From a virus: 64,000 bases of DNA. Shown one piece after another: positions 1,839 to 59,605 of this stretch. A program made the translations under genes and the position numbers. How positions within the stretch are numbered: the stretch's first letter is position 1; every line of letters starts with the position of its first letter. Location of the stretch: IMG/VR virus record IMGVR_UViG_3300037010_000365, positions 17,962 to 81,961 of that record; one strand, 5' to 3'. The notes below the pieces were generated by a model. That model searched no databases and had not been told where the DNA came from. It worked only from the letters and a program-made list of their open reading frames with translations.

Positions 1839-2221
1839 TGAATTTATTAATGTTTAGAATTCCGTTATGGATTGTTGGAGTTGTCTTTATAGCAATGTCG
1901 ACACAGATAGTATCTCTTACATACGATCTAAACAGAGCAGCAGATAAATTAGATAAAGTCAATGAGATGTACACAACAGCTAAGAATAATAATGAGGTGT
2001 TAGTTGCTTCAATATCTGATCAAAATACTGCTATTGATAAGCTTAAGCAGTTGAGTGCGCTGCAACAAAAAGAATTAGATGCGAGAGTGCTAGAAGCTAA
2101 TAGATTAATGGATCTTAATAACAAGGCCGTTAACACAATTAATAATGTCAAGGTCGATACGACAGGTGAAGGGAGTATTAAATGGCTATCAGAACAGTCG
2201 CGTTCATTATCTCAATGGTAA
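1838..2221 (+). CDS. Inner-membrane spanin (Rz-like)
   Basis: 127 residues with one N-terminal membrane segment (IPLWIVGVVFIAMSTQIVSL, about 8-27) and then a long charged helix with heptad character, the architecture of i-spanins such as Rz. The last 40 nt overlap the start of a lipoprotein gene in another frame, the classic overlapped Rz/Rz1 arrangement. Spanins fuse inner and outer membranes in the last step of lysis. In T4 the spanins lie next to pnk, not among the head/tail genes, so the location is unusual. No sequence identity to a named spanin is claimed. Confidence 0.75.
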   Translation: MNLLMFRIPLWIVGVVFIAMSTQIVSLTYDLNRAADKLDKVNEMYTTAKNNNEVLVASISDQNTAIDKLKQLSALQQKELDARVLEANRLMDLNNKAVNTINNVKVDTTGEGSIKWLSEQSRSLSQW

Positions 2222-2469
2222 TAGCATTGCTGCTTTTGTCTGGATGCACCACTCAGCGTGAACCAGTGATTCGGGGTGTTAGAGTTGATGTACCTATCGC
2301 TGTTGAATCTCCGAGTGTCCCTGACAGACCTCTACCAACATTGCCAATAAGTGATATAACAGATGGCTCACCGAATGATGTTGTTGTTAAAAAGTATGCA
2401 ACTAGCATTGTTATCTTAAAGAATGAGATAAATTGGTATAGGTCTGTGATCTACAAGGATAAGCATTAA
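2182..2469 (+). CDS. Outer-membrane spanin lipoprotein (Rz1-like)
   Basis: 95 residues. The N terminus is a lipoprotein signal: a hydrophobic stretch (VAFIISMVIALLLL) followed by lipobox LLSGC, so Cys22 would be lipidated after cleavage. The mature part is proline-rich at first (SPSVPDRPLPTLP), as in many Rz1 proteins, and ends in a helix that could pair with the i-spanin. The start lies inside the i-spanin gene, a 40-nt overlap. The gene ends on TAATG, overlapping the small terminase start. Confidence 0.8.
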   Translation: MAIRTVAFIISMVIALLLLSGCTTQREPVIRGVRVDVPIAVESPSVPDRPLPTLPISDITDGSPNDVVVKKYATSIVILKNEINWYRSVIYKDKH

Positions 2470-2843
2470 TGTTTGGATCCTTACAACAACGGTTTAACGC
2501 AGAACCTATGGAATACACAATATTACCAAGCAAAACTAGCAATAAAGTTGCAGTATCAACTGAAGTAGTTGATACTTATATTGAAGATGAGCTTAAAGAT
2601 ACAGTAACACAGATTAATGATGCAGCGGATAAAATACTAAACTTGGCAAAGACAAGTGAGCAACCTAAAGCCTATGAGGTTTATGGTACGCTACTAAAGA
2701 CTAAAATTGACGCGTTAAAAGAACTAAATAATATCAGAAAAGGTACTGAAAAGCAGGTTGCTGGCGTTATTAATAATACGCAGATAAATGCGTCAGGTAC
2801 CAATATCAACGAAATATTAAAGGCGATGCGAACACAACAATGA
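2469..2843 (+). CDS. 16: Small terminase subunit gp16
   Basis: 124 residues (T4 gp16 is 164). The small subunit recognises viral DNA and stimulates the large terminase ATPase. Central helices (NDAADKILNLAKTSEQPKAY and VYGTLLKTKIDALKELNNIRK) match the gp16 core pattern of an AAK helix, a SPR/QPK-type turn and a second helix ending in LNNIRK/LHKDMK. It starts on the TAATG of the spanin gene and overlaps gp17 by ATGA, implying translational coupling. Confidence 0.85.
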   Translation: MFGSLQQRFNAEPMEYTILPSKTSNKVAVSTEVVDTYIEDELKDTVTQINDAADKILNLAKTSEQPKAYEVYGTLLKTKIDALKELNNIRKGTEKQVAGVINNTQINASGTNINEILKAMRTQQ

Positions 2844-3331
2844 GTAAAAAAGACATACCCTGGGGTAAATTTGATTTAGCATCAAAGCCAGATGATTCTG
2901 TGCTGAACATAGAACCTGATCAAGAAGGGTATTACCATGACGCTGCAGGTGAACGGTTTTCATTCAATGGAAATAGAACGCTTAGACCTGCTCATGTTAG
3001 AATGCACTTAAATGAATATCATATACAGGAAATCGCTAAGTGCGCAGAAGATATGAGATATTTCATTTTTAATTATTGTAAAGTACTAACAAGTCGCGGA
3101 TGGCGTACACCAGATCTCAGAGATTATCAAGAAACATACCTAAAAACAGCGCTAACAGATAATAGAATTGTGCTACTCCAAGGCCGGCAATCAGGTAAAT
3201 GCCAAAATTATAACACGATTATAAATATTCGTAATAAACACACCGGAGAAGTTGAAGCACTCTCTGTTGGTGAATTTCATGAACGAATAAGGAACAAAAA
3301 TAGTGATCAAACTAAAGAAGTCGATTGTTAA
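2840..3331 (+). CDS. 17: Large terminase gp17, N-terminal fragment ending in an intein N-part
   Basis: 163 residues. The first 120 residues are the terminase N-terminal region, ending exactly in the Walker A motif (LLQGRQSGK). T4 gp17 has SRQLGKT at this place. At residue 121 the sequence switches to an intein start: Cys1, then NTIINIRNKHTGEVEALSVGEF, the usual block A followed by the IRN-KTGE-type strand. The frame stops 43 residues into the intein. The rest of gp17 is in another frame from 3453. Without splicing in trans, or a frame repair, no complete P-loop can form, so this break matters for an essential packaging motor. Confidence 0.88.
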   Translation: MSKKDIPWGKFDLASKPDDSVLNIEPDQEGYYHDAAGERFSFNGNRTLRPAHVRMHLNEYHIQEIAKCAEDMRYFIFNYCKVLTSRGWRTPDLRDYQETYLKTALTDNRIVLLQGRQSGKCQNYNTIINIRNKHTGEVEALSVGEFHERIRNKNSDQTKEVDC

Positions 3332-3812
3332 AACATTTAAAATAATATCAGCACCGATTAAACCGTATGATATTATTCCACAAGAAGTTGATTATATATC
3401 GCTATGGGTTTAATACTACAGATTGCGTTTGACATTAGTTCGAGTATAGTAAATGAATTTATCTGATAACACTTACCGTAAATTCACTGAAGTATATGAT
3501 GTTAGTGATTATGAAGTCCTATCTCATAACGGTTGGGTAGATATAACACAATCAAATCAGACTGTAGAGTATGAGGTGTACTTATTAGAATTAGAAAATG
3601 GTTTATCTCTAGAATGTGCTGATACCCATATTTTGATGACTAATGATCTAACCGAAGTATATGCAAAAGACAGTTTGGGTTCGTTGATATACACTAAATC
3701 AGGTCCGTCTAAGGTAATATCGGTTAGCAACCTAGGCTACTCTGAGCGTATGTATGACCTATCTGTAGGTGGTGATCATACGTATTTCACAAATGATATA
3801 TTGTCACATAAT
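3200..3812 (+). other. Intein 1 in terminase Walker A, split into two reading frames
   Basis: The intein begins at Cys (3200-3202), directly after the P-loop lysine, and ends at the Asn codon 3810-3812 in the motif DILSHN. The next extein residue is Thr, which completes GKT. The C part has the penetrated block B-like strand (GLSLECADTHILM) and block F/G (MYDLSVGGDHTYFTNDILSHN). Bases 3329-3452 do not continue either frame: frame 2 stops at 3329 and frame 3 has stops at 3411, 3447 and 3450 before ATG 3453. The two pieces give 43 + 120 residues, about a mini-intein's worth. This is either a split intein or an intein broken by mutation or indels. Confidence 0.8.
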
Positions 3813-5561
3813 ACAGTTGCGACTGCTCTTTATTTTGTTTGGGCTGCTACATTTCACAACGACGTTAAAATTGGTATCAGCTCAAACGTAGAGAAAGGTG
3901 CTATTGAAGTACTTGATAAAGTTAAAAAGATCTACGGATCTTTACCTATTTGGTTGCAACAAGGCGTTGAAAAGTGGAACGTAAAGACCGTCATTTTAGA
4001 AAATAAATCCAGTATTATCACATCAGCTACTAACGGAGATGCGTTTCGTGGATTCTCGTTTGTAGGCGGTGAAGGATATTCTACATTATATGTAGATGAG
4101 TGTGTTGAATATAATACTAAGATTAAAATTCTATCAAGTACTACAAAAATATTCGAAGAAGTAAGTATCGGTGATTTATACCGAAGATTTAACACTGACA
4201 GTGTTGTGTATGTTTCTGATCTATCCGTGATGACGCAGACCGGCATGAGATCTTTTGATGGGATTAAGCGAACTGTTAGATCTGACGGGATTAAGATTAA
4301 AACAGCTTCAGGTGAGTTGATCTGTACACCAGAACATTTACTGAAAATCGAGAATGGCTTCATTGAAGCTAAAGATTCATTCAATAAATTCATTGATAGC
4401 AGTTCGGGCCTTGAATTGGTGACTAGCATAGAGCCGTATAACGTTGAATCTGAATACTTCGACCTTATTAATGTTAAAGGCGGTCATACATACTTAACAA
4501 ATAATATTGTTTCACACAACTGTGCATTTGTTCATGACTGGCAAGCATTTTCAGACTCGGTATTACCTACCGTATCATCTGACCCTAATGCAAATATTAT
4601 TTTGACATCCACAGCAAATGGTATGAATCATTTTTATGAAATGGTTAAACTAGCAAGAGCTAAAATATCTGAATACACACTAATAGAAACGCCATGGAAT
4701 TGTCTACCAGAGAGAAACGAAGAATGGAAGCAGAAGATAATTGCAACTAACGGCATTCAATACTTTAATCAGAACTATGGTAATCAGTTTTTGGGTTCAT
4801 CATATACGCTTATTAACAGCGAAGGTCTTGAAAAACTTATTTCACGCACGCCAATCCAATCAAATGATAATCTTACAATTTATCAAAAACCAATAAAAGG
4901 TGCTAAGTATATCATATTAGGTGATCTTGCGTCTGGAGCTGGTGAAGATTTTTCAGTTTTACAAGTGATTAAACTGAGTAAGCGTAAATTTGAACAAGTT
5001 GCGATTTTTAGATCTAAAGATACTCCAGTTCTTAGTATGCCTTTGGTTATTCAAGAAATTGGTAAAAAATATAATGATGCGTTTGTGTTTATGGAAATCA
5101 ACTTCGGTGAAGAAGCTGCTAGCAGACTATATCACGACTTAGAGTATGAAAATCTTTTAACAATTGCGGTTCATAATGGAAAACAAAAGCTACAAGGCTT
5201 CCGCGGTAAGATGCAAACAGGTCTTCGGGTTGATGTTAAAATTAAGCAGACACAACTTAGCTCATTAAAAACGTTAATTGAATCAAATAAGCTTGTAATT
5301 AATGACAATACTACTATCTCTGAATTTTATTCATTCGTTCAGCATGGCATTTCATTCGCTGCAGAAGCAAATAAGCATGATGATTGTGTTATGGCGTTGG
5401 CACTATTAGGATGGCTAGTAACTCAGCCTGTATTTTCTGAAATTATTGATTATGATTACATTGCTGACTATGAGAGTGAAAAATCTGAAGAATTATCAGA
5501 TTTAATACCTGCCGCGTTTTTTGGGTATAACGACCCAGATGAATGGGAAGTTTTTGAATAG
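3453..5561 (+). CDS. 17: Large terminase gp17, C-terminal fragment with intein C-part, ATPase remainder, second intein and nuclease
   Basis: 702 residues. Residues 1-120 are the end of intein 1. The extein resumes with TVATALYFVWAATF, the strand after Walker A. Walker B is LYVDE, interrupted by a second intein (residues 217-356), after which CAFVHDW continues as in T4 DECAF. The nuclease domain follows: GDLASGAGEDF with the first acidic residue, EINFGEEAA, and HDDCVMALALLGW with the C-terminal acidic pair. Together with the N fragment the exteins match the usual gp17 length. The ATG at 3453 has no strong Shine-Dalgarno sequence, so it may not be a real start. Confidence 0.9.
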   Translation: MNLSDNTYRKFTEVYDVSDYEVLSHNGWVDITQSNQTVEYEVYLLELENGLSLECADTHILMTNDLTEVYAKDSLGSLIYTKSGPSKVISVSNLGYSERMYDLSVGGDHTYFTNDILSHNTVATALYFVWAATFHNDVKIGISSNVEKGAIEVLDKVKKIYGSLPIWLQQGVEKWNVKTVILENKSSIITSATNGDAFRGFSFVGGEGYSTLYVDECVEYNTKIKILSSTTKIFEEVSIGDLYRRFNTDSVVYVSDLSVMTQTGMRSFDGIKRTVRSDGIKIKTASGELICTPEHLLKIENGFIEAKDSFNKFIDSSSGLELVTSIEPYNVESEYFDLINVKGGHTYLTNNIVSHNCAFVHDWQAFSDSVLPTVSSDPNANIILTSTANGMNHFYEMVKLARAKISEYTLIETPWNCLPERNEEWKQKIIATNGIQYFNQNYGNQFLGSSYTLINSEGLEKLISRTPIQSNDNLTIYQKPIKGAKYIILGDLASGAGEDFSVLQVIKLSKRKFEQVAIFRSKDTPVLSMPLVIQEIGKKYNDAFVFMEINFGEEAASRLYHDLEYENLLTIAVHNGKQKLQGFRGKMQTGLRVDVKIKQTQLSSLKTLIESNKLVINDNTTISEFYSFVQHGISFAAEANKHDDCVMALALLGWLVTQPVFSEIIDYDYIADYESEKSEELSDLIPAAFFGYNDPDEWEVFE
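4101..4520 (+). other. Mini-intein 2 in terminase Walker B
   Basis: 140 residues in frame within gp17. It starts with Cys (4101-4103) in CVEYNTKIKI and has block B (GELICTPEHLLKI, with the conserved His). It ends with FDLINVKGGHTYLTNNIVSHN, the terminal His-Asn at 4515-4520. The +1 extein residue is Cys of the Walker B neighbourhood (VDE / CAF). There is no endonuclease domain. All residues needed for cis splicing are visible, so this one should be active. Confidence 0.92.
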
Positions 5562-5569
5562 TATAAATA
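5562..5569 (+). promoter_or_regulatory. Late promoter for gp20
   Basis: TATAAATA, the T4-type gp55-dependent late promoter element, 26 nt before the portal gene start and just after the gp17 stop. Confidence 0.8.
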
Positions 5570-5594
5570 CATAATACGTTAAAGATGGTAGAAT

Positions 5595-7058
5595 ATGAAT
5601 CTTTTTAATTGGCTTGGTACAACCGAGAAAAAACAAAAAATAAAGGATAATGTAGCTCCTGCTGCGTCTCCTGTTATGCCAGATGATCCAAGCGTCCAGG
5701 TTATGTCTGGTTTTGGTATGTTTCATACTGGGTATAATTTTGGTACAAGCAGTGCACAAAATATTGAGAAATCCGTATTATACCGTCGCGAAATGGCTAA
5801 TCAACCAGAAGTTGAGTTTGCCATTGACGAAGTTGTGAATGAAATGGTTGATTTTTCATTAGAGATCCCGTTTGAAATAAACTTTGCTGAAGAATCACAA
5901 TTAAGCGCTGCAGTTAAAGATAAAATCGCTGAATCATTTAAGACAGTTAGTTCATTGTATAGCGCTAACCTTGGTGATGATATTCGCAGTTGGTATATCG
6001 ATGGTATAAGAGCATGGTTTATTCAGCTATCAAAAGATAGAAAAAATATAATTGCGCTTAAACCTATTGAACCATGGATGATTAAAAAGGTAACACCAAC
6101 CCGGATTGAACTAGTTGATGACGTTAATACTTATATTGAAGATGAACCTTACTACGCGTATTCCCAAGACGGTAATTTAGAAGGTTCAAAGATTGTTAAA
6201 CTTGTATACGATTCTGTATTATACATAGACTCAGGTAAGTATGATGCTAATAATAATGCGGTATCTTATCTAGATGCAGCTATCAAACCGTTAAACGATT
6301 TACTATCTCTTGAAAATGCAACAATCATTTACAGATTGACTCGTGCACCGGAAAAACGAGCATTCTATGTTGATACAGGTCAGTTACCTACCAATAAAGC
6401 TGAAGAATATGTAAATGCTTTGATGAAACGGTTTAAGACTAAGCTAGACTATGATTCTAAAACTGGCGCGGTTAAAACATCGAACCAGAATACTATTTCA
6501 GCAACAGTTGACTATTGGTTGCCTCGTCGTGAAGGCTCAACCAGTACAGAAATTAACCAGATCTCTGAGACAAGTAATGCGATCTCTAATATTTCAGAGG
6601 ATATTAACTACTTTAAACGTAAAGCGTTTAGAGCATTAAAAATCCCTGAATCACGTGTTGGTGATAACCCTACGTTTAACTTAGGTCAGAGTGGTACCAT
6701 CACAAGAGAAGAAGTTAAGTTTAGTCAGTTTATTGATAGACTACATAACATATATGTAAGCCCTTTATTTCAATTAATTAAAGTTGATTTAATGATTAAA
6801 GGTATTATGTCTGCTCAAGAATTTGATGATATTGCTGATGATATTAAAATCAAATTAATAAATAATGATTATTTTGCTGAGACAAAACGTATTGAGTTAT
6901 TAACGGAGAAAATTGCGGTAATAGATGCAATTTCGCCTCACATAGGTAAATACTTTACATCTGAATTTGTATTCAAGGATATTTTAGGATTATCTGATGA
7001 AAAAATTGAACAGATTAAAGCGAAGATAGATAAAGAGCCTAAGGTTCAAGAAGAGTAA
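5595..7058 (+). CDS. 20: Portal vertex protein gp20
   Basis: 487 residues (T4 gp20 is 524). It forms the dodecameric portal through which DNA enters and leaves the capsid and on which the prohead starts. Recognised by YRREMANQPEVEFAIDEVVNE (about 56-76), the WRALKIPESR-type motif (KAFRALKIPESRVG) and the FIDRLHNIYVSPLFQLIKVDLMIKG segment, all typical of T4 portals. It has its own late promoter and is followed by the prohead core genes. Confidence 0.93.
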   Translation: MNLFNWLGTTEKKQKIKDNVAPAASPVMPDDPSVQVMSGFGMFHTGYNFGTSSAQNIEKSVLYRREMANQPEVEFAIDEVVNEMVDFSLEIPFEINFAEESQLSAAVKDKIAESFKTVSSLYSANLGDDIRSWYIDGIRAWFIQLSKDRKNIIALKPIEPWMIKKVTPTRIELVDDVNTYIEDEPYYAYSQDGNLEGSKIVKLVYDSVLYIDSGKYDANNNAVSYLDAAIKPLNDLLSLENATIIYRLTRAPEKRAFYVDTGQLPTNKAEEYVNALMKRFKTKLDYDSKTGAVKTSNQNTISATVDYWLPRREGSTSTEINQISETSNAISNISEDINYFKRKAFRALKIPESRVGDNPTFNLGQSGTITREEVKFSQFIDRLHNIYVSPLFQLIKVDLMIKGIMSAQEFDDIADDIKIKLINNDYFAETKRIELLTEKIAVIDAISPHIGKYFTSEFVFKDILGLSDEKIEQIKAKIDKEPKVQEE

Positions 7059-7068
7059 ATTGTGTTTT

Positions 7069-7076
7069 TATAAATA
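7069..7076 (+). promoter_or_regulatory. Late promoter for gp67-gp22
   Basis: TATAAATA (in TTTTATAAATACAT), 47 nt upstream of the gp67 start, between portal and core genes. Confidence 0.75.
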
Positions 7077-7122
7077 CATAAATAGAATTGTGAACATTTA
7101 AAAAATAAATTGGAGACTTATA

Positions 7123-7308
7123 ATGAGTTTAAAAGACGAAATGTTGAAAGAGCTTAGCGGTAAACTTGAAGCAATTGCAGAATCATTTTCAGCTTATGTT
7201 GAATATGTATTGAACGAAAAGAAAGTAGAGCTTGATGATGAAAAAACGGTTGGTGATGATCCTGAAGAGGACGACGTCAAGAAAGAAGATAAAGAAGATA
7301 CTAAATAA
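7123..7308 (+). CDS. 67: Prohead core protein gp67
   Basis: 61 residues (T4 gp67 is 80). An N-terminal helix (LKDEMLKELSGKLEAIAESF) is followed by a strongly acidic tail (DDEKTVGDDPEEDDVKKEDKED). A small acidic protein between portal and gp68/gp21 is the T4 gp67 position. In T4 it is part of the scaffold and is degraded by gp21. The Shine-Dalgarno sequence TTGGAGA precedes the start by a normal distance. Confidence 0.75.
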   Translation: MSLKDEMLKELSGKLEAIAESFSAYVEYVLNEKKVELDDEKTVGDDPEEDDVKKEDKEDTK

Positions 7309-7327
7309 GTATTAATGGAGCCTTCTA

Positions 7328-7564
7328 ATGAAGAGAGTAATACGTTTTAAAGCATCGGGGCAACGCGTTATTAAACGTAAATGTGCACCAGGACAAATCG
7401 TTAGAAATGGGTCGTGTACTGTTCAAACAGCTAGTGATGCGTTAAGGCGTAAGCGTTCAGCTAAGAAAATGGTTAAGACCAAAAATAGACAGCAAGCAAA
7501 AACATCTTTAGGTATCCGTGCCATGAAACGCGCGGTTGCTAAAAGACATGCAGCAGGTTACTAG
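7328..7564 (+). CDS. 68: Prohead core protein gp68
   Basis: 78 residues, very basic (many Lys/Arg, pI clearly high). KCAPGQIVRNGSC, followed by a helix rich in Arg/Lys (RRKRSAKKMVKTKNRQQAK), fits the gp68 family, shorter than T4 gp68 (141). It is probably a scaffold component that contacts the acidic gp67. It lies 19 nt after gp67 and 9 nt before gp21. Confidence 0.7.
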   Translation: MKRVIRFKASGQRVIKRKCAPGQIVRNGSCTVQTASDALRRKRSAKKMVKTKNRQQAKTSLGIRAMKRAVAKRHAAGY

Positions 7565-53718: not shown

Positions 53719-55341
53719 ATGAAAACAATTCACGTTAGAAAACGCTCAGGTGAATTAGAGCTTCGCGACGATGATAAAATCAATAAGCTGGTACAGTTTG
53801 CTTGTGAAGGTGTAAATGATGTTTCAGCGTCAATGGTTGTTATTCAATCTAAAGTGAAGTTTTATGATGGTATTCCAACTGATGATATTCACGAAGCATT
53901 AATTAAAACCGCAGCTGATTTAATCACAGTAGCAACCCCAAACTATCAACAAGTTGCGGCTAAGCTAATTTCTTATAAATTACGAAAAATTGCATATCGT
54001 ACTTATACACCGCCTACGTTGTTAGATCATATCAATCGTGTGGTTAGTTTAGGATTCTACGATAAGGCTATTCTAGAACTATACACCGAAGACGAAATTA
54101 ATAAGCTAGATAAGGTTATTAATCACGGGAATGACGATTTGTTTACATACGCGGCTATGAAACAATTTGAAGATAAGTATCTCGTTAGAAATCGTTCAAC
54201 CGGTGAAGTACTAGAAACCCCTCAAATGGCTTACATTCTAGTAGCTATGACTCTATTTTCCATGGAAGACGCTAGTTGCAGAATGGAATTGGTTAAAGAG
54301 TATTATAAAGAAATCTCAACAGGTATCAAGTCAACAATCAGTTTACCTACGCCAATTAGCGCAGGAGTTAGAACACCTACACGCCAATTCAGTTCATGCG
54401 TAGTTTTAAAAGCAGGTGATTCAATTGACTCCTTGAATGCTACAACATCAGCTATTGTGAAGTACGTTTCTAAACGAGCTGGCATTGGCGTTGATTTTTC
54501 AGCTGTACGTCCTAGTGGATCCCCAATTCGTGGGGGTGAAGCAACACATACAGGAGCCATTCCGTTTATTAAGTATATCCAAGGTGGTGTTAAGAGCAGT
54601 TCACAAGGTGCTATTAGAGCAGGCGCTGCTACGCTTTACATACCAGTATGGCATCGTGAAATCGAAGACTTAATTGTTATTAAAAATAACAAAGGCACTG
54701 AAGATAACCGAGCTAGAGGGTTAGACTACGCTATTCAATTAAACGGACACTTCTATAAGAAAGCAATGGCTCGCGAAGAATATTGTCTATTCAATCCTAA
54801 CGAACATCACGACTTATATGAAGCATTCTTTAACGATCAAGATTTGTACAGCACCCTGTACGATAAACTATCGAAGAAGAAAGGTGTTAAGAAAGTAGAT
54901 GCATTCACATTGTTGACTAATATCATCACTGAAAGAGCAAGCACAGGTCGTATCTATATTATGAACGTTGACCATGTGAATAAACAAACTTCACATAAAT
55001 CAACAATTTATAGTTCAAATCTTTGCTTATCTGGTGAAACCATAGTTACCATTAAACAAGACGGTGTTGCTAATCAAGTATCAATGAAAGAATTGGATGA
55101 AATTTTCACAAATCATAAAAATATTATGATTAAGTCGTATGACGAAAATACGGATAGCGTAGTATGGACATTGGTAGAAGCTTCAGCAATGACATCTGTG
55201 TCAGCTAAGGTTGTGAAAGTAACTGATTCGTCAAGCGGCCAATCCATAATTTGTACGCCTGACCATGAAGTTTATACCTCAAACCGTGGATACGTTAAAG
55301 CTGGTAATTTATTAAGCGATGATAAATTAGTTTTATGCTAA
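53719..55341 (+). CDS. nrdA: Ribonucleotide reductase large subunit NrdA, N-part fused to split-intein N-half
   Basis: 540 residues. Residues 1-435 are class Ia NrdA: N-terminal ATP-cone (VRKRSGELELRDDDKI), QFSSCVVL with the redox Cys equivalent to E. coli Cys225, GIGVDFSAVRPSGSPIRG and RGLDYAIQLN. After SSNL the next residue should be the thiyl-radical Cys, but an intein N-half starts instead: CLSGETIVTIKQDG ... SIICTPDHEVYTSNRG ... DDKLVLC, 105 residues, then stop. The rest of NrdA is encoded beyond an endonuclease gene. Only protein trans-splicing can give whole NrdA. Confidence 0.93.
   Translation: MKTIHVRKRSGELELRDDDKINKLVQFACEGVNDVSASMVVIQSKVKFYDGIPTDDIHEALIKTAADLITVATPNYQQVAAKLISYKLRKIAYRTYTPPTLLDHINRVVSLGFYDKAILELYTEDEINKLDKVINHGNDDLFTYAAMKQFEDKYLVRNRSTGEVLETPQMAYILVAMTLFSMEDASCRMELVKEYYKEISTGIKSTISLPTPISAGVRTPTRQFSSCVVLKAGDSIDSLNATTSAIVKYVSKRAGIGVDFSAVRPSGSPIRGGEATHTGAIPFIKYIQGGVKSSSQGAIRAGAATLYIPVWHREIEDLIVIKNNKGTEDNRARGLDYAIQLNGHFYKKAMAREEYCLFNPNEHHDLYEAFFNDQDLYSTLYDKLSKKKGVKKVDAFTLLTNIITERASTGRIYIMNVDHVNKQTSHKSTIYSSNLCLSGETIVTIKQDGVANQVSMKELDEIFTNHKNIMIKSYDENTDSVVWTLVEASAMTSVSAKVVKVTDSSSGQSIICTPDHEVYTSNRGYVKAGNLLSDDKLVLC
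55024..55338 (+). other. Split-intein N-half in NrdA
   Basis: Codons for 105 residues from Cys1 (55024-55026) to the last Cys before TAA. Contains block A (CLSGETIV), block B with T-P-D-H and the Y-T-S-N-R-G-Y-V-K-A-G-N-L block. Length matches known natural split inteins, where the break lies between blocks B and F. Confidence 0.92.
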
Positions 55342-55347
55342 GAGATT

Positions 55348-55383
55348 ACTCCGCTCATTAAATACTATTTTAATGAGCGGAGT
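55348..55383. promoter_or_regulatory. 15-bp hairpin covering the endonuclease ribosome site
   Basis: ACTCCGCTCATTAAA ... TTTAATGAGCGGAGT, perfect 15-bp stem with a 6-nt loop. The GGAG at 55379-55382, the only Shine-Dalgarno for ATG 55393 (10 nt away), is locked in the 3' arm. Could block translation of the endonuclease from long transcripts or act as a terminator-like structure. Confidence 0.7.
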
Positions 55384-55392
55384 CCTCTATCA

Positions 55393-56352
55393 ATGAACTA
55401 TGAAAGACTGTATAATATTTTTATTGATTATTGTAGAGTCACACCGCCGACACAGCGGATTGAGCGTAGAAATAAACATGATGAGAGATTATTTCAAGAT
55501 CATTTATACCTTGAAAAGCATCATATTATACCTAGACATAACGGTGGAAGAGATACAGATGAAAACCTTGTGGTATTACTACCAGAAGAACATTATCTCG
55601 CGCATTTGATAAGGTTTAAAGCTTACAACGATAGAAATGATTTTTTAGCAATTAGATTCATGGTTAATGGATATAACAATAGCGAAAGAAAGTTGCTAAT
55701 ACCTAAAAAGGTAACATCAAAAATTATAGGTAGATTTAAACAAAAGATTTATTATTTTAGGAAGAAAAACACATGGCATACTGATGATGGTATACAACGT
55801 ATATCTAGAGCTAGGACTGGAAAGGTATCAGTAGTTGATTCAATAACAAAAGAAGTAATTGGTTCAATAGATAGAAATCATCCTAATATCATTTCTGGAA
55901 AATGGGTACACCATACTAAAGGTATGCTTAGTGCAATTTCGATAGAAACAGGTAAAACTGTTAGACTCACGACATCAGAGTACAGAAATAATAAAGAGTT
56001 GTATAAACCATTGCTGGATACTAGCGGCGAAGCCAATCAGAATTTTTCTGGGTTTAGCGATGATGATCTTATTAATTTATATTATGAATTTTGTGGTAAA
56101 CTAATTTCGCTAGGGTCATCAATTATTCCATCGTACTCAACGTCAATACGCTATCATAGATCAATTGGGGTTTATGTGCCTATTACTTATACTAAATTTA
56201 GGTTTAACGGTAATTATGACCAATGCGTTCGTGATATGCATGACGAAATGTCTAAAAAATATAAGCTTCCACTTATGAAAATTAGGAGTAATAAAGACAT
56301 AAAATATATAAATGATTTAATCAGGAGATTAAAATTAAATGATAACAATTGA
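55393..56352 (+). CDS. HNH homing endonuclease inside the nrdA break
   Basis: 319 residues. HNH domain at about 41-75: LEKHHIIPRHNGGRDTDENL and LLPEEHYLAHLIRF, giving the H-H, N and H of the beta-beta-alpha-metal site. The C-terminal half has repeated DNA-recognition-like segments (GKVSVVDSITKEVIGSIDRN, then GKTVRLTTSEYRNNKELY, as in NUMOD-type modules). AT-rich compared with nrdA. The gene overlaps the start of the NrdA C-part by 14 nt. It probably cuts unfractured nrdA of related phages at the insertion site. Confidence 0.88.
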   Translation: MNYERLYNIFIDYCRVTPPTQRIERRNKHDERLFQDHLYLEKHHIIPRHNGGRDTDENLVVLLPEEHYLAHLIRFKAYNDRNDFLAIRFMVNGYNNSERKLLIPKKVTSKIIGRFKQKIYYFRKKNTWHTDDGIQRISRARTGKVSVVDSITKEVIGSIDRNHPNIISGKWVHHTKGMLSAISIETGKTVRLTTSEYRNNKELYKPLLDTSGEANQNFSGFSDDDLINLYYEFCGKLISLGSSIIPSYSTSIRYHRSIGVYVPITYTKFRFNGNYDQCVRDMHDEMSKKYKLPLMKIRSNKDIKYINDLIRRLKLNDNN

Positions 56353-57454
56353 ATATTTAGATTATGAGATACCAGTATATGATATTACTGTAGCAGATAC
56401 TCATAATTTTTTCGCTAATGGTATTTTAGTGCATAACTGCCTAGAAATTGCCGCTCCTACAGCTGACCTAACTGAGTTTAGTAATTTACGTACTGAAGTT
56501 GCAAAAGATACCGGTTTATATTCAGATGACATGCCAATGGAACAGTTTAGAACTCGTTTTGGCGAGATTAATCTTTGTACGTTATCTGCTATTAATTGGG
56601 GTAATATTAAGAAGCCAGGGGACTTTGAACGAGTTTGTCATCTAGCACTCAGAGCGTTGGATAACTTAATTACATACCAAGATTATCCGATGATTGCAGC
56701 CCACGTACCTGCCATTAATCGACGTAACCTTGGTGTGGGTATTATCAACTTAGCGCACTTCTTAGCAACTCATAACGTTAAGTACGGTGAAGAAAAGGCA
56801 TTAGAGTTGGTTGATACATACGCTGAAGCAATGTATTACTATCTGATGAAAGCCAACGTACAATTAGCTAAAGAACGGGGACCTTGCGGCTGGTATAAAG
56901 ACACTCATTACTCAGACGGTGTGTTTATACATGAATTACGAAATGCTAATGTTGACTCTCTAATTCCACATAATCCAAAAATGGATTGGGAATCTCTTAG
57001 AGCTGATATGATTAAATATGGTGTACGTAATTCACAAGTAGTAGCATTGATGCCTTCAGAGACATCAGCAGTTATTTCAAACGCTACTAATGGCATTGAA
57101 CCTCCACGGAAAATCATTACAGTAAAAACGTCAAAAGACTCTGTAATGAAACAATTGGTACCTAAACCTAAACTAAAATATGACTTATTATGGGATCAAC
57201 CAACCCCAGCAGGTTATATTAAAACGGTTGCTGTGTTACAAAAATACAATGATCAATCAATCTCGGCAAATACGTCTTATAACCCTGATAATTTCAACGG
57301 TCCTATTCCAATGACTCAACTTCTTCAGGATATTTTGATGTGTTATAAGTTTGGGGTAAAAACAGCTTACTATCATAATACAATGGTAGAAATGACTGAT
57401 GATATTACAGAAACAAAATCTGAAGAATCAGATTGTGAATCTTGCAAAATTTAA
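56339..57454 (+). CDS. nrdA: NrdA C-part fused to split-intein C-half
   Basis: 371 residues, ATG 56339 with CAGGAG upstream. Residues 1-33 are the intein C-half: MITIEYLDYEIPVYDITVADTHNFFANGILVHN in one-letter form across blocks F and G, ending His-Asn. Residue 34 is the +1 Cys, which is also the catalytic thiyl-radical Cys of NrdA (C-L-E-I, E. coli Cys439). INLCTLSAINWG carries the second redox Cys (Cys462), and LMPSETSAVISNATNGIEPP the active-site loop. C-terminal CESCKI is the redox tail. Confidence 0.94.
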   Translation: MITIEYLDYEIPVYDITVADTHNFFANGILVHNCLEIAAPTADLTEFSNLRTEVAKDTGLYSDDMPMEQFRTRFGEINLCTLSAINWGNIKKPGDFERVCHLALRALDNLITYQDYPMIAAHVPAINRRNLGVGIINLAHFLATHNVKYGEEKALELVDTYAEAMYYYLMKANVQLAKERGPCGWYKDTHYSDGVFIHELRNANVDSLIPHNPKMDWESLRADMIKYGVRNSQVVALMPSETSAVISNATNGIEPPRKIITVKTSKDSVMKQLVPKPKLKYDLLWDQPTPAGYIKTVAVLQKYNDQSISANTSYNPDNFNGPIPMTQLLQDILMCYKFGVKTAYYHNTMVEMTDDITETKSEESDCESCKI

Positions 57455-58468: not shown

Positions 58469-59605
58469 ATGGAACAACAATGCTCTAAAACATTCTCATT
58501 GTGCAATTTACATTCAGCTCAACTTGAAAATACTTGCTTTTTGTCGTTGAACTGTACACCAGCAGTTCAACGTTTTGATGTAGTTAAGCATCAATCAATT
58601 TTAAAGCTTAATAACCAAATGTTAAGTGTGTTTTGGCGTCCAGAAGAGATTGATCTAAGTCGTGATCGTAATGATTTTAACGCTTTATCAGATGCACAAC
58701 AGCAGATCTTTACTCAAACATTGCTGCGTGCTGTAATGTTGGATAGTATTCAAGGTAGAGCTCCATTTGAAGTGCTTGGACCCATTTGCGGGTTGTCAGA
58801 GGTAGAATCTGGTTTAATTATTCAGACCGCGTTTGAGAACATCCATTCTCAGAGTTATTCGCATATTATCCGAAACATTTATGCCCATCCTGATAAGATT
58901 TTCGATCAGTTGAAAGATAACCCTGATATTATCAAATGCGCCTCTGATATTTCAAAATACTATGATGACGTATTACGGTTTAATACTCTTAAAGATTGTA
59001 CCGAATACGGAATTCCTACTACTGAAGTTTATGATTTGTACGAGCATAAAAAAACCGTGTGGAAATTATTGATTAGTATCAACGGGCTAGAAGCATTACG
59101 TTTCCATTCTGCATTTGCTGTATTCTTTGCTTTTGCCGAAGTTGGTTCAATGATTGGTAACTCTAAAATCTTATCAATGATTGCCAGGGATGAACAGTTA
59201 CACGTAGCATTTACTAGTCAGTTACTAAACATTATGCCTAAAGAAGATCCTGACTATTCTAAGATTCAGAAAGAATGTTATCAAGACACGGTAAGCATTT
59301 ATAATTCGATTGCAGACCAGGAAATCGAATGGGTTGATTATCTGTTTAGTAATGGTGTAATGCTTGGGCTTAATAGAGATATTTTAGTTGATTATATTCA
59401 TAGTGTGGCAAGAACTCGTATGATTAAGTTTGGTGTTGCTGCTAGCGATATTAAGTATCCAGTTGTTAAAAACCCAATCCCATGGATGTCTAACTATCTG
59501 GAAACTAGCAGCGTGCAGACTGCTCCACAAGAATCAGAGCTTATCAATTACACACAAGGCACTATTGATAATAGTAACTTAAATGAATTTACTTTTGAGT
59601 TCTAA
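58469..59605 (+). CDS. nrdB: Ribonucleotide reductase small subunit NrdB
   Basis: 378 residues (T4 NrdB is 388), class Ia. Iron ligands and radical Tyr are in place: AVMLDSIQGR (Asp), FENIHSQSYSHI (Glu, His and the Tyr), FAFAEVGS (Glu), ARDEQLH (Glu and His). The C-terminal NEFTFEF is the NrdA-docking tail. No intron or intein here, unlike T4 nrdB with its group I intron. Confidence 0.95.
   Translation: MEQQCSKTFSLCNLHSAQLENTCFLSLNCTPAVQRFDVVKHQSILKLNNQMLSVFWRPEEIDLSRDRNDFNALSDAQQQIFTQTLLRAVMLDSIQGRAPFEVLGPICGLSEVESGLIIQTAFENIHSQSYSHIIRNIYAHPDKIFDQLKDNPDIIKCASDISKYYDDVLRFNTLKDCTEYGIPTTEVYDLYEHKKTVWKLLISINGLEALRFHSAFAVFFAFAEVGSMIGNSKILSMIARDEQLHVAFTSQLLNIMPKEDPDYSKIQKECYQDTVSIYNSIADQEIEWVDYLFSNGVMLGLNRDILVDYIHSVARTRMIKFGVAASDIKYPVVKNPIPWMSNYLETSSVQTAPQESELINYTQGTIDNSNLNEFTFEF

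What the first reader, a model, noticed from the sequence alone, without database searches (positions are those of the whole stretch)
53719..57454. nrdA is a fractured gene: split intein with an HNH endonuclease gene in the break
Seen directly: the NrdA frame ends in an intein N-half (Cys1 at 55024). A separate gene with an H-H-x-x-P ... N ... H nuclease domain follows. Then a new start codon opens an intein C-half of 33 residues ending His-Asn and the rest of NrdA. The +1 residue is the thiyl-radical Cys, so no active reductase exists without trans-splicing. Fractured genes with split inteins and an endonuclease in the gap are known from metagenomic phage data (gp41, IMPDH, NrdJ, NrdA types). 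Here the whole arrangement is in one genome with an HNH rather than the Vsr-like enzyme usually described. The N-half (105 aa) and C-half (33 aa) are of the size of fast natural split inteins.
Basis: partly seen in the sequence, partly recalled or inferred. Interest (0 to 1): 0.88.

Follow-up and report, generated by a model that had tools for sequence, protein, structure and literature searches.

The report
Phage nrdA broken by split intein
A T4-like phage makes the large subunit of its DNA-building-block enzyme in two pieces that a self-splicing protein (a split intein) is expected to weld together, with a DNA-cutting 'homing' gene sitting in the gap; this is a well-formed new example of a known kind of gene, and its relatives show that different nuclease types are swapped on a shared tail domain at this one site.

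Summary
NrdA-N (435 aa) runs into a 105-aa intein N-half (Cys1 at 55024); a 319-aa HNH gene follows; then a 33-aa intein C-half ending His-Asn restarts NrdA at the thiyl-radical Cys (E. coli C439). Splicing motifs, NrdA and HNH residues are intact. It is not unique: Yersinia phage TG1 carries the same unit, and IMG/VR holds about 70 distinct nrdA split inteins at this spot, with HNH (17), GIY-YIG (41), other (2) or no/remnant endonuclease (11). HNH and GIY-YIG in fractured split-intein genes are already published (MIJ3 polB; AceL nrdHF), so 'HNH instead of Vsr' is not the novelty. What I add: (1) HNH, GIY-YIG and, in cis inteins of Ackermannviridae, HNH_3 nucleases at this one site share a C-terminal module, which (GIY-YIG form) matched only nrdA loci in two collections; (2) in relatives the cassette has far lower dS than the flanking NrdA, a homing signature; (3) a strong hairpin precedes the endonuclease start, as for T4 I-TevI and Aeh1 mobE. 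Trans-splicing and cutting are inferred, not shown. The same genome also has an early-split intein in terL.

The parts
53719..55023 (+). NrdA N-terminal extein (435 aa: ATP cone, all-alpha and first part of barrel domain), ends ..YSSNL (N437, L438 in E. coli numbering)
55024..55338 (+). intein N-half, 105 aa; Cys1, block A CLSGET, block B CTPDH; stop TAA 55339-55341
55348..55383 (+). perfect 15-bp hairpin between N-half stop and HNH start; 3' arm holds GGAG (55379-55382), a possible HNH ribosome site 10 nt before the ATG; late-promoter-like ATTAAATAC (6/8 to TATAAATA) at 55357
   Evidence: z -6.95 / -9.1, no U-run so not terminator-like
55393..56352 (+). HNH homing-endonuclease gene, 319 aa (nuclease domain about aa 1-80; H43, H44, N58, H67)
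   Evidence: low-confidence model's best fold matches are HNH domains
56005..56262 (+). C-terminal module of the HNH protein (aa 205-290), shared with GIY-YIG endonucleases found in the same nrdA slot
56323..56327 (+). AGGAG, likely ribosome site for the NrdA-C reading frame, inside the HNH gene
56339..56437 (+). intein C-half, 33 aa (block F VYDITVADTHNFF, block G ILVHN), own ATG overlapping the HNH stop by 14 bp
56438..57454 (+). NrdA C-terminal extein starting at the thiyl-radical Cys (C439 equivalent), ends with redox pair CESCK
58469..59605 (+). nrdB, intact small subunit partner gene

Best explanation
This is a fractured nrdA gene. Two separately translated proteins, NrdA-N/IntN and IntC/NrdA-C, associate through the complementary intein halves; the intein excises itself and joins L438 to C439, giving one intact class Ia alpha subunit (inferred from intact motifs). 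The HNH gene in the break is a homing endonuclease: it would cut intein-free nrdA at or near this codon in a co-infecting phage, and repair would copy the whole intein/HNH cassette into it (inferred; supported by signatures in relatives). The hairpin before the HNH start would hold its translation down on read-through nrdA mRNA so that the nuclease appears late, while IntC/NrdA-C starts from its own ribosome site. The C-terminal module that HNH and GIY-YIG enzymes of this slot share is most likely the part that recognises the nrdA site.
For: Anatomy and profiles. Same unit in TG1 with 43-49% identity in HNH and intein N-half and the same overlapping C-half start. About 70 distinct split nrdA inteins at this site; 79 of the 80 nearest NrdA relatives have an uninterrupted site SNLC.EI. 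Slot states are scattered on the NrdA tree: at least 22 changes on 89 rows, e.g. GIY-YIG L154 beside HNH L015, cis L026 beside split L019, both starred branches. Homing signature: in 8 of 8 pairs of relatives the endonuclease has lower dS than NrdA-C (e.g. 0.13 vs 0.72; 0.44 vs 2.18), with dN/dS 0.06-0.15 for the endonuclease. C-module: hhalign prob 97.5, E=5e-12, while nuclease domains do not align; the GIY-YIG form hits only nrdA loci among 50,697 phage records and only nrdA loci (62 of 62) in IMG/VR. Hairpins of unrelated sequence at the same place in the window, TG1, L004, L025 and the GIY-YIG group; TATAAATA before 45 of 58 endonucleases against about 1.9 expected.
Against: No splicing, cutting or expression has been measured. 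No close relative of the window's own HNH exists to test selection on it. Its C-terminal module alone finds nothing, so its link to the GIY-YIG module rests on profiles and on 32% identity over 96 aa. The window's own late promoter is degenerate. Within the GIY-YIG group the hairpin shows little covariation because the sequences are too alike.
Confidence: 0.88

Rival explanations
1. Genes-in-pieces: the halves assemble non-covalently into an active reductase, as in Aeromonas phage Aeh1, and the intein halves are inert tails.
For: Aeh1 NrdA split by the HNH gene mobE keeps function without an intein (PMC2988022, PMC3653736).
Against: All splicing residues are intact and the intein halves are conserved over distant phages, mostly with low dN/dS. 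The Aeh1 break lies after GNLCIEIALPTVP, so its catalytic loop stays on one chain; here N437 and C439/E441 are on different chains.
Confidence: 0.06
2. Decaying locus: nrdA is a pseudogene and the phage relies on host or other reductase; the intein and HNH are relics.
For: Campylobacter phage nrdA of similar layout was called degenerate in the literature (PMC3653736).
Against: No frameshift or stop in any part, all catalytic residues and the C-terminal CESCK present, intact nrdB downstream; in Campylobacter phages the 'pseudogene' is itself a split-intein layout.
Confidence: 0.04
3. Splicing is real, but the HNH protein no longer homes (inactive or serving another role).
For: Related loci carry truncated HNH remnants or none while the split intein stays intact (L035, L043, L014, L018, L023, L027), so loss of the nuclease is common.
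Against: H43, H44, N58, H67 kept, full length kept, hairpin kept; purifying selection on the endonuclease in relatives.
Confidence: 0.15

Closest known systems
Yersinia phage vB_YenM_TG1 nrdA (NC_028820)
   Same: Same gene, same splice site SNL|C, 101-aa and 33-aa intein halves, HNH gene 45% identical over 224 aa, SD-blocking hairpin, C-half start overlapping the HNH stop
   Different: Hairpin sequence unrelated and with a perfect TATAAATA; C-terminal part of HNH diverges; deposited without mention of an intein
Fractured genes with split inteins (Dassa et al. 2009, gkp095; including nrdA)
   Same: Enzyme gene broken in two by a split intein with a free-standing endonuclease in between; 7 intein-interrupted nrdA cases in ocean metagenomes are cited from it (PMC3653736)
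   Different: HNH rather than the Vsr-like family that, from memory, was found in about half of those loci; the paper itself could not be read here
MIJ3 phage polB split intein with HNH gene (PMC6892783)
   Same: Split intein with HNH homing-endonuclease gene in the gap
   Different: DNA polymerase B, different site and intein; no control element or shared module seen in the passages read
AceL NrdHF split intein with GIY-YIG gene (PMC7891396)
   Same: Ribonucleotide reductase gene, fractured layout, GIY-YIG gene in the gap
   Different: Small subunit, class 3 intein (no Cys1)
Aeromonas phage Aeh1 nrdA/mobE
   Same: HNH gene of the MobE type inserted in nrdA close to the same loop, with hairpin plus late-promoter control (PMC2988022)
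   Different: No intein; insertion downstream of the NLC.EI motif
NrdJ-1 split intein (PDB 8ubs, 9omb)
   Same: Closest solved intein, E=5e-19 over 87 residues
   Different: Other host protein; splicing speed of the window intein unknown

Membership tests
Fractured gene with split intein | Conserved enzyme frame broken into two separately translated ORFs | tested here: met
Fractured gene with split intein | Complementary intein halves at the break, split between block B/N4 and block F | tested here: met
Fractured gene with split intein | Free-standing endonuclease gene between the halves | tested here: met
Fractured gene with split intein | Trans-splicing restores the enzyme | not testable with these tools
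   needs co-expression
MobE-like HNH homing endonuclease | HHxxP..N..H motif and similarity to phage homing endonucleases | tested here: met
   PF01844 1.8e-5, PHROG 655 3e-22; invariant residues
MobE-like HNH homing endonuclease | Cuts the allele that lacks the insert | not testable with these tools
   only indirect: dS pattern in relatives
Vsr-like homing endonuclease | Vsr-type nuclease domain | tested here: not met
   no such Pfam match; HNH found instead
Aeh1-type genes in pieces | nrdA split by HNH gene without intein | tested here: not met
   intein halves present; Aeh1 site differs
I-TevI/mobE-type hairpin and late-promoter control | Hairpin that takes in the endonuclease ribosome site | tested here: met
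   15-bp stem, z -9.1, GGAG in the 3' arm
I-TevI/mobE-type hairpin and late-promoter control | Late promoter TATAAATA inside the hairpin | tested here: inconclusive
   window has ATTAAATA (6/8); exact in TG1 and 38 of 41 GIY-YIG loci

The most novel reading that the evidence does not exclude
At one codon pair of nrdA (438/439 or 439/440) phages run a modular homing system: a site-specific C-terminal recognition module stays with the address while three different nuclease domains (MobE-type HNH, GIY-YIG, HNH_3) are swapped onto it, in both cis inteins and split inteins, with late expression set by a re-evolved hairpin. The series empty site, cis mini-intein, cis intein with nested HNH_3, split intein with endonuclease, split intein with a dead or absent endonuclease would be a whole homing cycle read off living genomes.
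Probability: 0.55. Interest if true: 0.66.

Novelty: new member of a known kind. Interest (0 to 1): 0.47.

Why it matters
The window gives a complete, intact fractured nrdA with an HNH enzyme, and its relatives make an open question testable: how homing nucleases keep their target while changing their cutting domain, and how cis inteins turn into split ones. The intein pair is also a candidate fast split intein for protein engineering, being related to NrdJ-1. For genome annotation it shows that several 'disrupted' phage nrdA genes (TG1, KP13-7, Campylobacter phages) are probably trans-spliced and functional.

Tried and rejected
Sequence artefact: rejected, layout recurs in TG1 and tens of contigs. 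Hairpin as intrinsic terminator: rejected, no U-run and not in the terminator scan. Late promoter in the window's own hairpin: not established; TATAAATA is not enriched in the window overall (15 vs 12.4 expected), although single copies lie 32-55 nt before gp20, gp23 and another late gene. Covariation proof of the hairpin in the GIY-YIG group: weak, one pair changed on both sides; the case rests on unrelated stems in different clades. Structure of the HNH protein: pTM 0.34, pLDDT 71; best PDB matches are HNH domains but E>0.1, so used only as weak support. A mixed C-module alignment was not conserved enough to scan with; the window's own module alone found nothing. Bacterial genomes: no relative of the HNH protein. 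A first check of the slot context with a faulty pattern gave 0 of 62; corrected. The Dassa 2009 paper is not in the library, so what it says is from memory or from papers that cite it.

Full report
What is there. On the + strand, 53719-55341 encodes the first 435 residues of NrdA followed by a 105-aa intein N-half and a stop; 55393-56352 encodes a 319-aa HNH protein; 56339-57454 starts, inside the last 14 bp of the HNH gene, a 33-aa intein C-half that ends His-Asn and runs into the remaining 338 residues of NrdA. Curated intein N- and C-terminal models match over cut-off, and the N-half finds the solved NrdJ-1 split intein at E=5e-19. Both NrdA pieces align without frameshift to E. coli R1. 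The join falls inside the catalytic loop: N437 and L438 are on the first protein, C439 (thiyl radical, from established knowledge of class Ia reductases) and E441 on the second. The record is an 81,961-bp IMG/VR contig without a second nrdA. Gene content shows a T4-like phage.

Relatives. Yersinia phage TG1 has the same unit, deposited as two NrdA pieces and a homing endonuclease without mention of an intein. Three scans of IMG/VR, with the reference phage loci and the window, gave 124 nrdA loci with an intein at this site, 77 distinct: 6 cis and 71 split. In the split ones the gap holds an HNH gene in 17, a GIY-YIG gene in 41 (representatives confirmed by Pfam), unidentified ORFs in 2 (Campylobacter phages) and a remnant or nothing in 11. 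The scans start from relatives, so this is not a census. Of the 80 nearest NrdA relatives of the window, 79 have an uninterrupted site. Two insertion points one residue apart occur: SNL|C.EI and SNLC|CEI; the second occurs where residue 440 is also Cys.

Mobility. On a tree of NrdA exteins (89 rows, quick method, several long branches) the slot state changes at least 22 times, and HNH, GIY-YIG, cis and empty alleles sit next to each other on well supported branches. In 8 of 8 pairs of relatives the endonuclease has lower dS than the adjoining NrdA-C (0.13 vs 0.72, 0.44 vs 2.18, 0.43 vs 1.53 and so on; in some pairs the NrdA value is saturated), with dN/dS of 0.06-0.15 for the endonuclease. That is what horizontal homing of a maintained cassette would leave. 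No relative close enough exists to show it for the window's own cassette.

Shared module. The C-terminal parts of the HNH group and of the GIY-YIG group are homologous by profile comparison (prob 97.5, E=5e-12, 97 columns) while the nuclease domains are not (prob below 1). Searched alone, the GIY-YIG form of the module hits only nrdA loci: KP13-7 (split, GIY-YIG) and Vibrio phage YC in 50,697 phage records, and 62 of 62 loci in IMG/VR. In YC and in Dickeya phage LIMEstone1 (Ackermannviridae) nrdA is one 1,100-codon frame with a cis intein at the same site, holding an in-frame domain (HNH_3 in YC by Pfam; the same motif by eye in LIMEstone1) followed by the same module. The simplest reading is that the module binds the nrdA target and that nuclease domains are exchanged on it. 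Binding itself is not shown. A second C-terminal type (L016 clade) matched only TG1's nrdA slot.

Control element. Between the intein stop and the HNH start lies a perfect 15-bp hairpin (z -9.1 for the gap) whose 3' arm contains GGAG 10 nt before the ATG. TG1, L004, L025, L095/096 and the GIY-YIG group have stems of unrelated sequence at the same place; in TG1 and L095/096 the arm also holds the ribosome site, in the GIY-YIG group it abuts the start codon. TATAAATA, the T4 late promoter core, lies before 45 of 58 slot endonucleases against about 1.9 expected; in the window it is only ATTAAATA. This is the arrangement described for I-TevI, I-TevII, I-TevIII, segB and Aeh1 mobE (PMC2988022). Loci that lost the endonuclease lack the exact late-promoter core in the gap. 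The C-half has its own AGGAG, so NrdA-C can be made while the nuclease is held down; this is inference.

Comparison with what is known. Fractured genes with split inteins are a known kind (Dassa 2009, cited in PMC3653736 for nrdA). An HNH gene in such a gap is published for MIJ3 polB (PMC6892783) and a GIY-YIG gene for AceL nrdHF (PMC7891396). The window is therefore a new member of a known kind. I did not find the shared address module with swapped nucleases described in the papers held here, but the key 2009 paper could not be read.

Verdict. Observation confirmed; interpretation right in the main, with the novelty claim for HNH not supported. Moderate interest for the window itself, higher for the family pattern it opens.

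Noticed in passing
window 2840-3331 and 3453-5561: TerL (gp17) is fractured too: the first ORF ends at Walker A ..GRQSGK|C plus a short 43-aa intein N-part, the second begins with a long C-part (about 120 aa, including block B) ending SHN|T; 121-nt gap without endonuclease. This early split resembles AceL-TerL (memory). PF14890 matches support it.
   Followed up: partly
window about 4100-4520: A second, cis mini-intein lies in the same TerL ORF at Walker B (DE|CVEYNTKIK..VSHN|CAFVHDW), so this phage has at least three inteins.
   Followed up: partly
L004 (Klebsiella phage KP13-7, OP617745) 2029-7559: nrdA looks broken three times: an HNH-like gene at 3022-3408 with no intein seen, a split intein with a GIY-YIG gene, and a second split intein (..GE|CQSWDNK.. 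and ..VSHN|TSSQISN) with another HNH-like ORF at 6050-7021.
   Followed up: no
L002 4001-5400 and L003 4001-5400 (Campylobacter phages IBB_35, CPt10): nrdA annotated as disrupted or a pseudogene is a split-intein layout (TNLC|CLAGD..SRI stop, then MIKITKK..CVHN|CEIS) with ORFs of unknown family in the gap; probably functional by trans-splicing.
   Followed up: partly
L330 5004-5216 and L388 (Ackermannviridae nrdA): Cis inteins at the same nrdA codon with an in-frame HNH_3-type domain instead of LAGLIDADG, carrying the same C-terminal module as the slot endonucleases of split loci.
   Followed up: partly
L035 5343-5687, L043 5308-5643, L037, L047, L014, L018, L023, L027: Split nrdA inteins whose endonuclease is truncated to its C-terminal part or gone while both intein halves stay intact: the late stage of a homing cycle.
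   Followed up: partly
L001 7388-8947 (TG1): A second homing-endonuclease gene sits directly downstream of the fractured nrdA, between nrdA and nrdB; in the window two small unrelated ORFs occupy that place.
   Followed up: no
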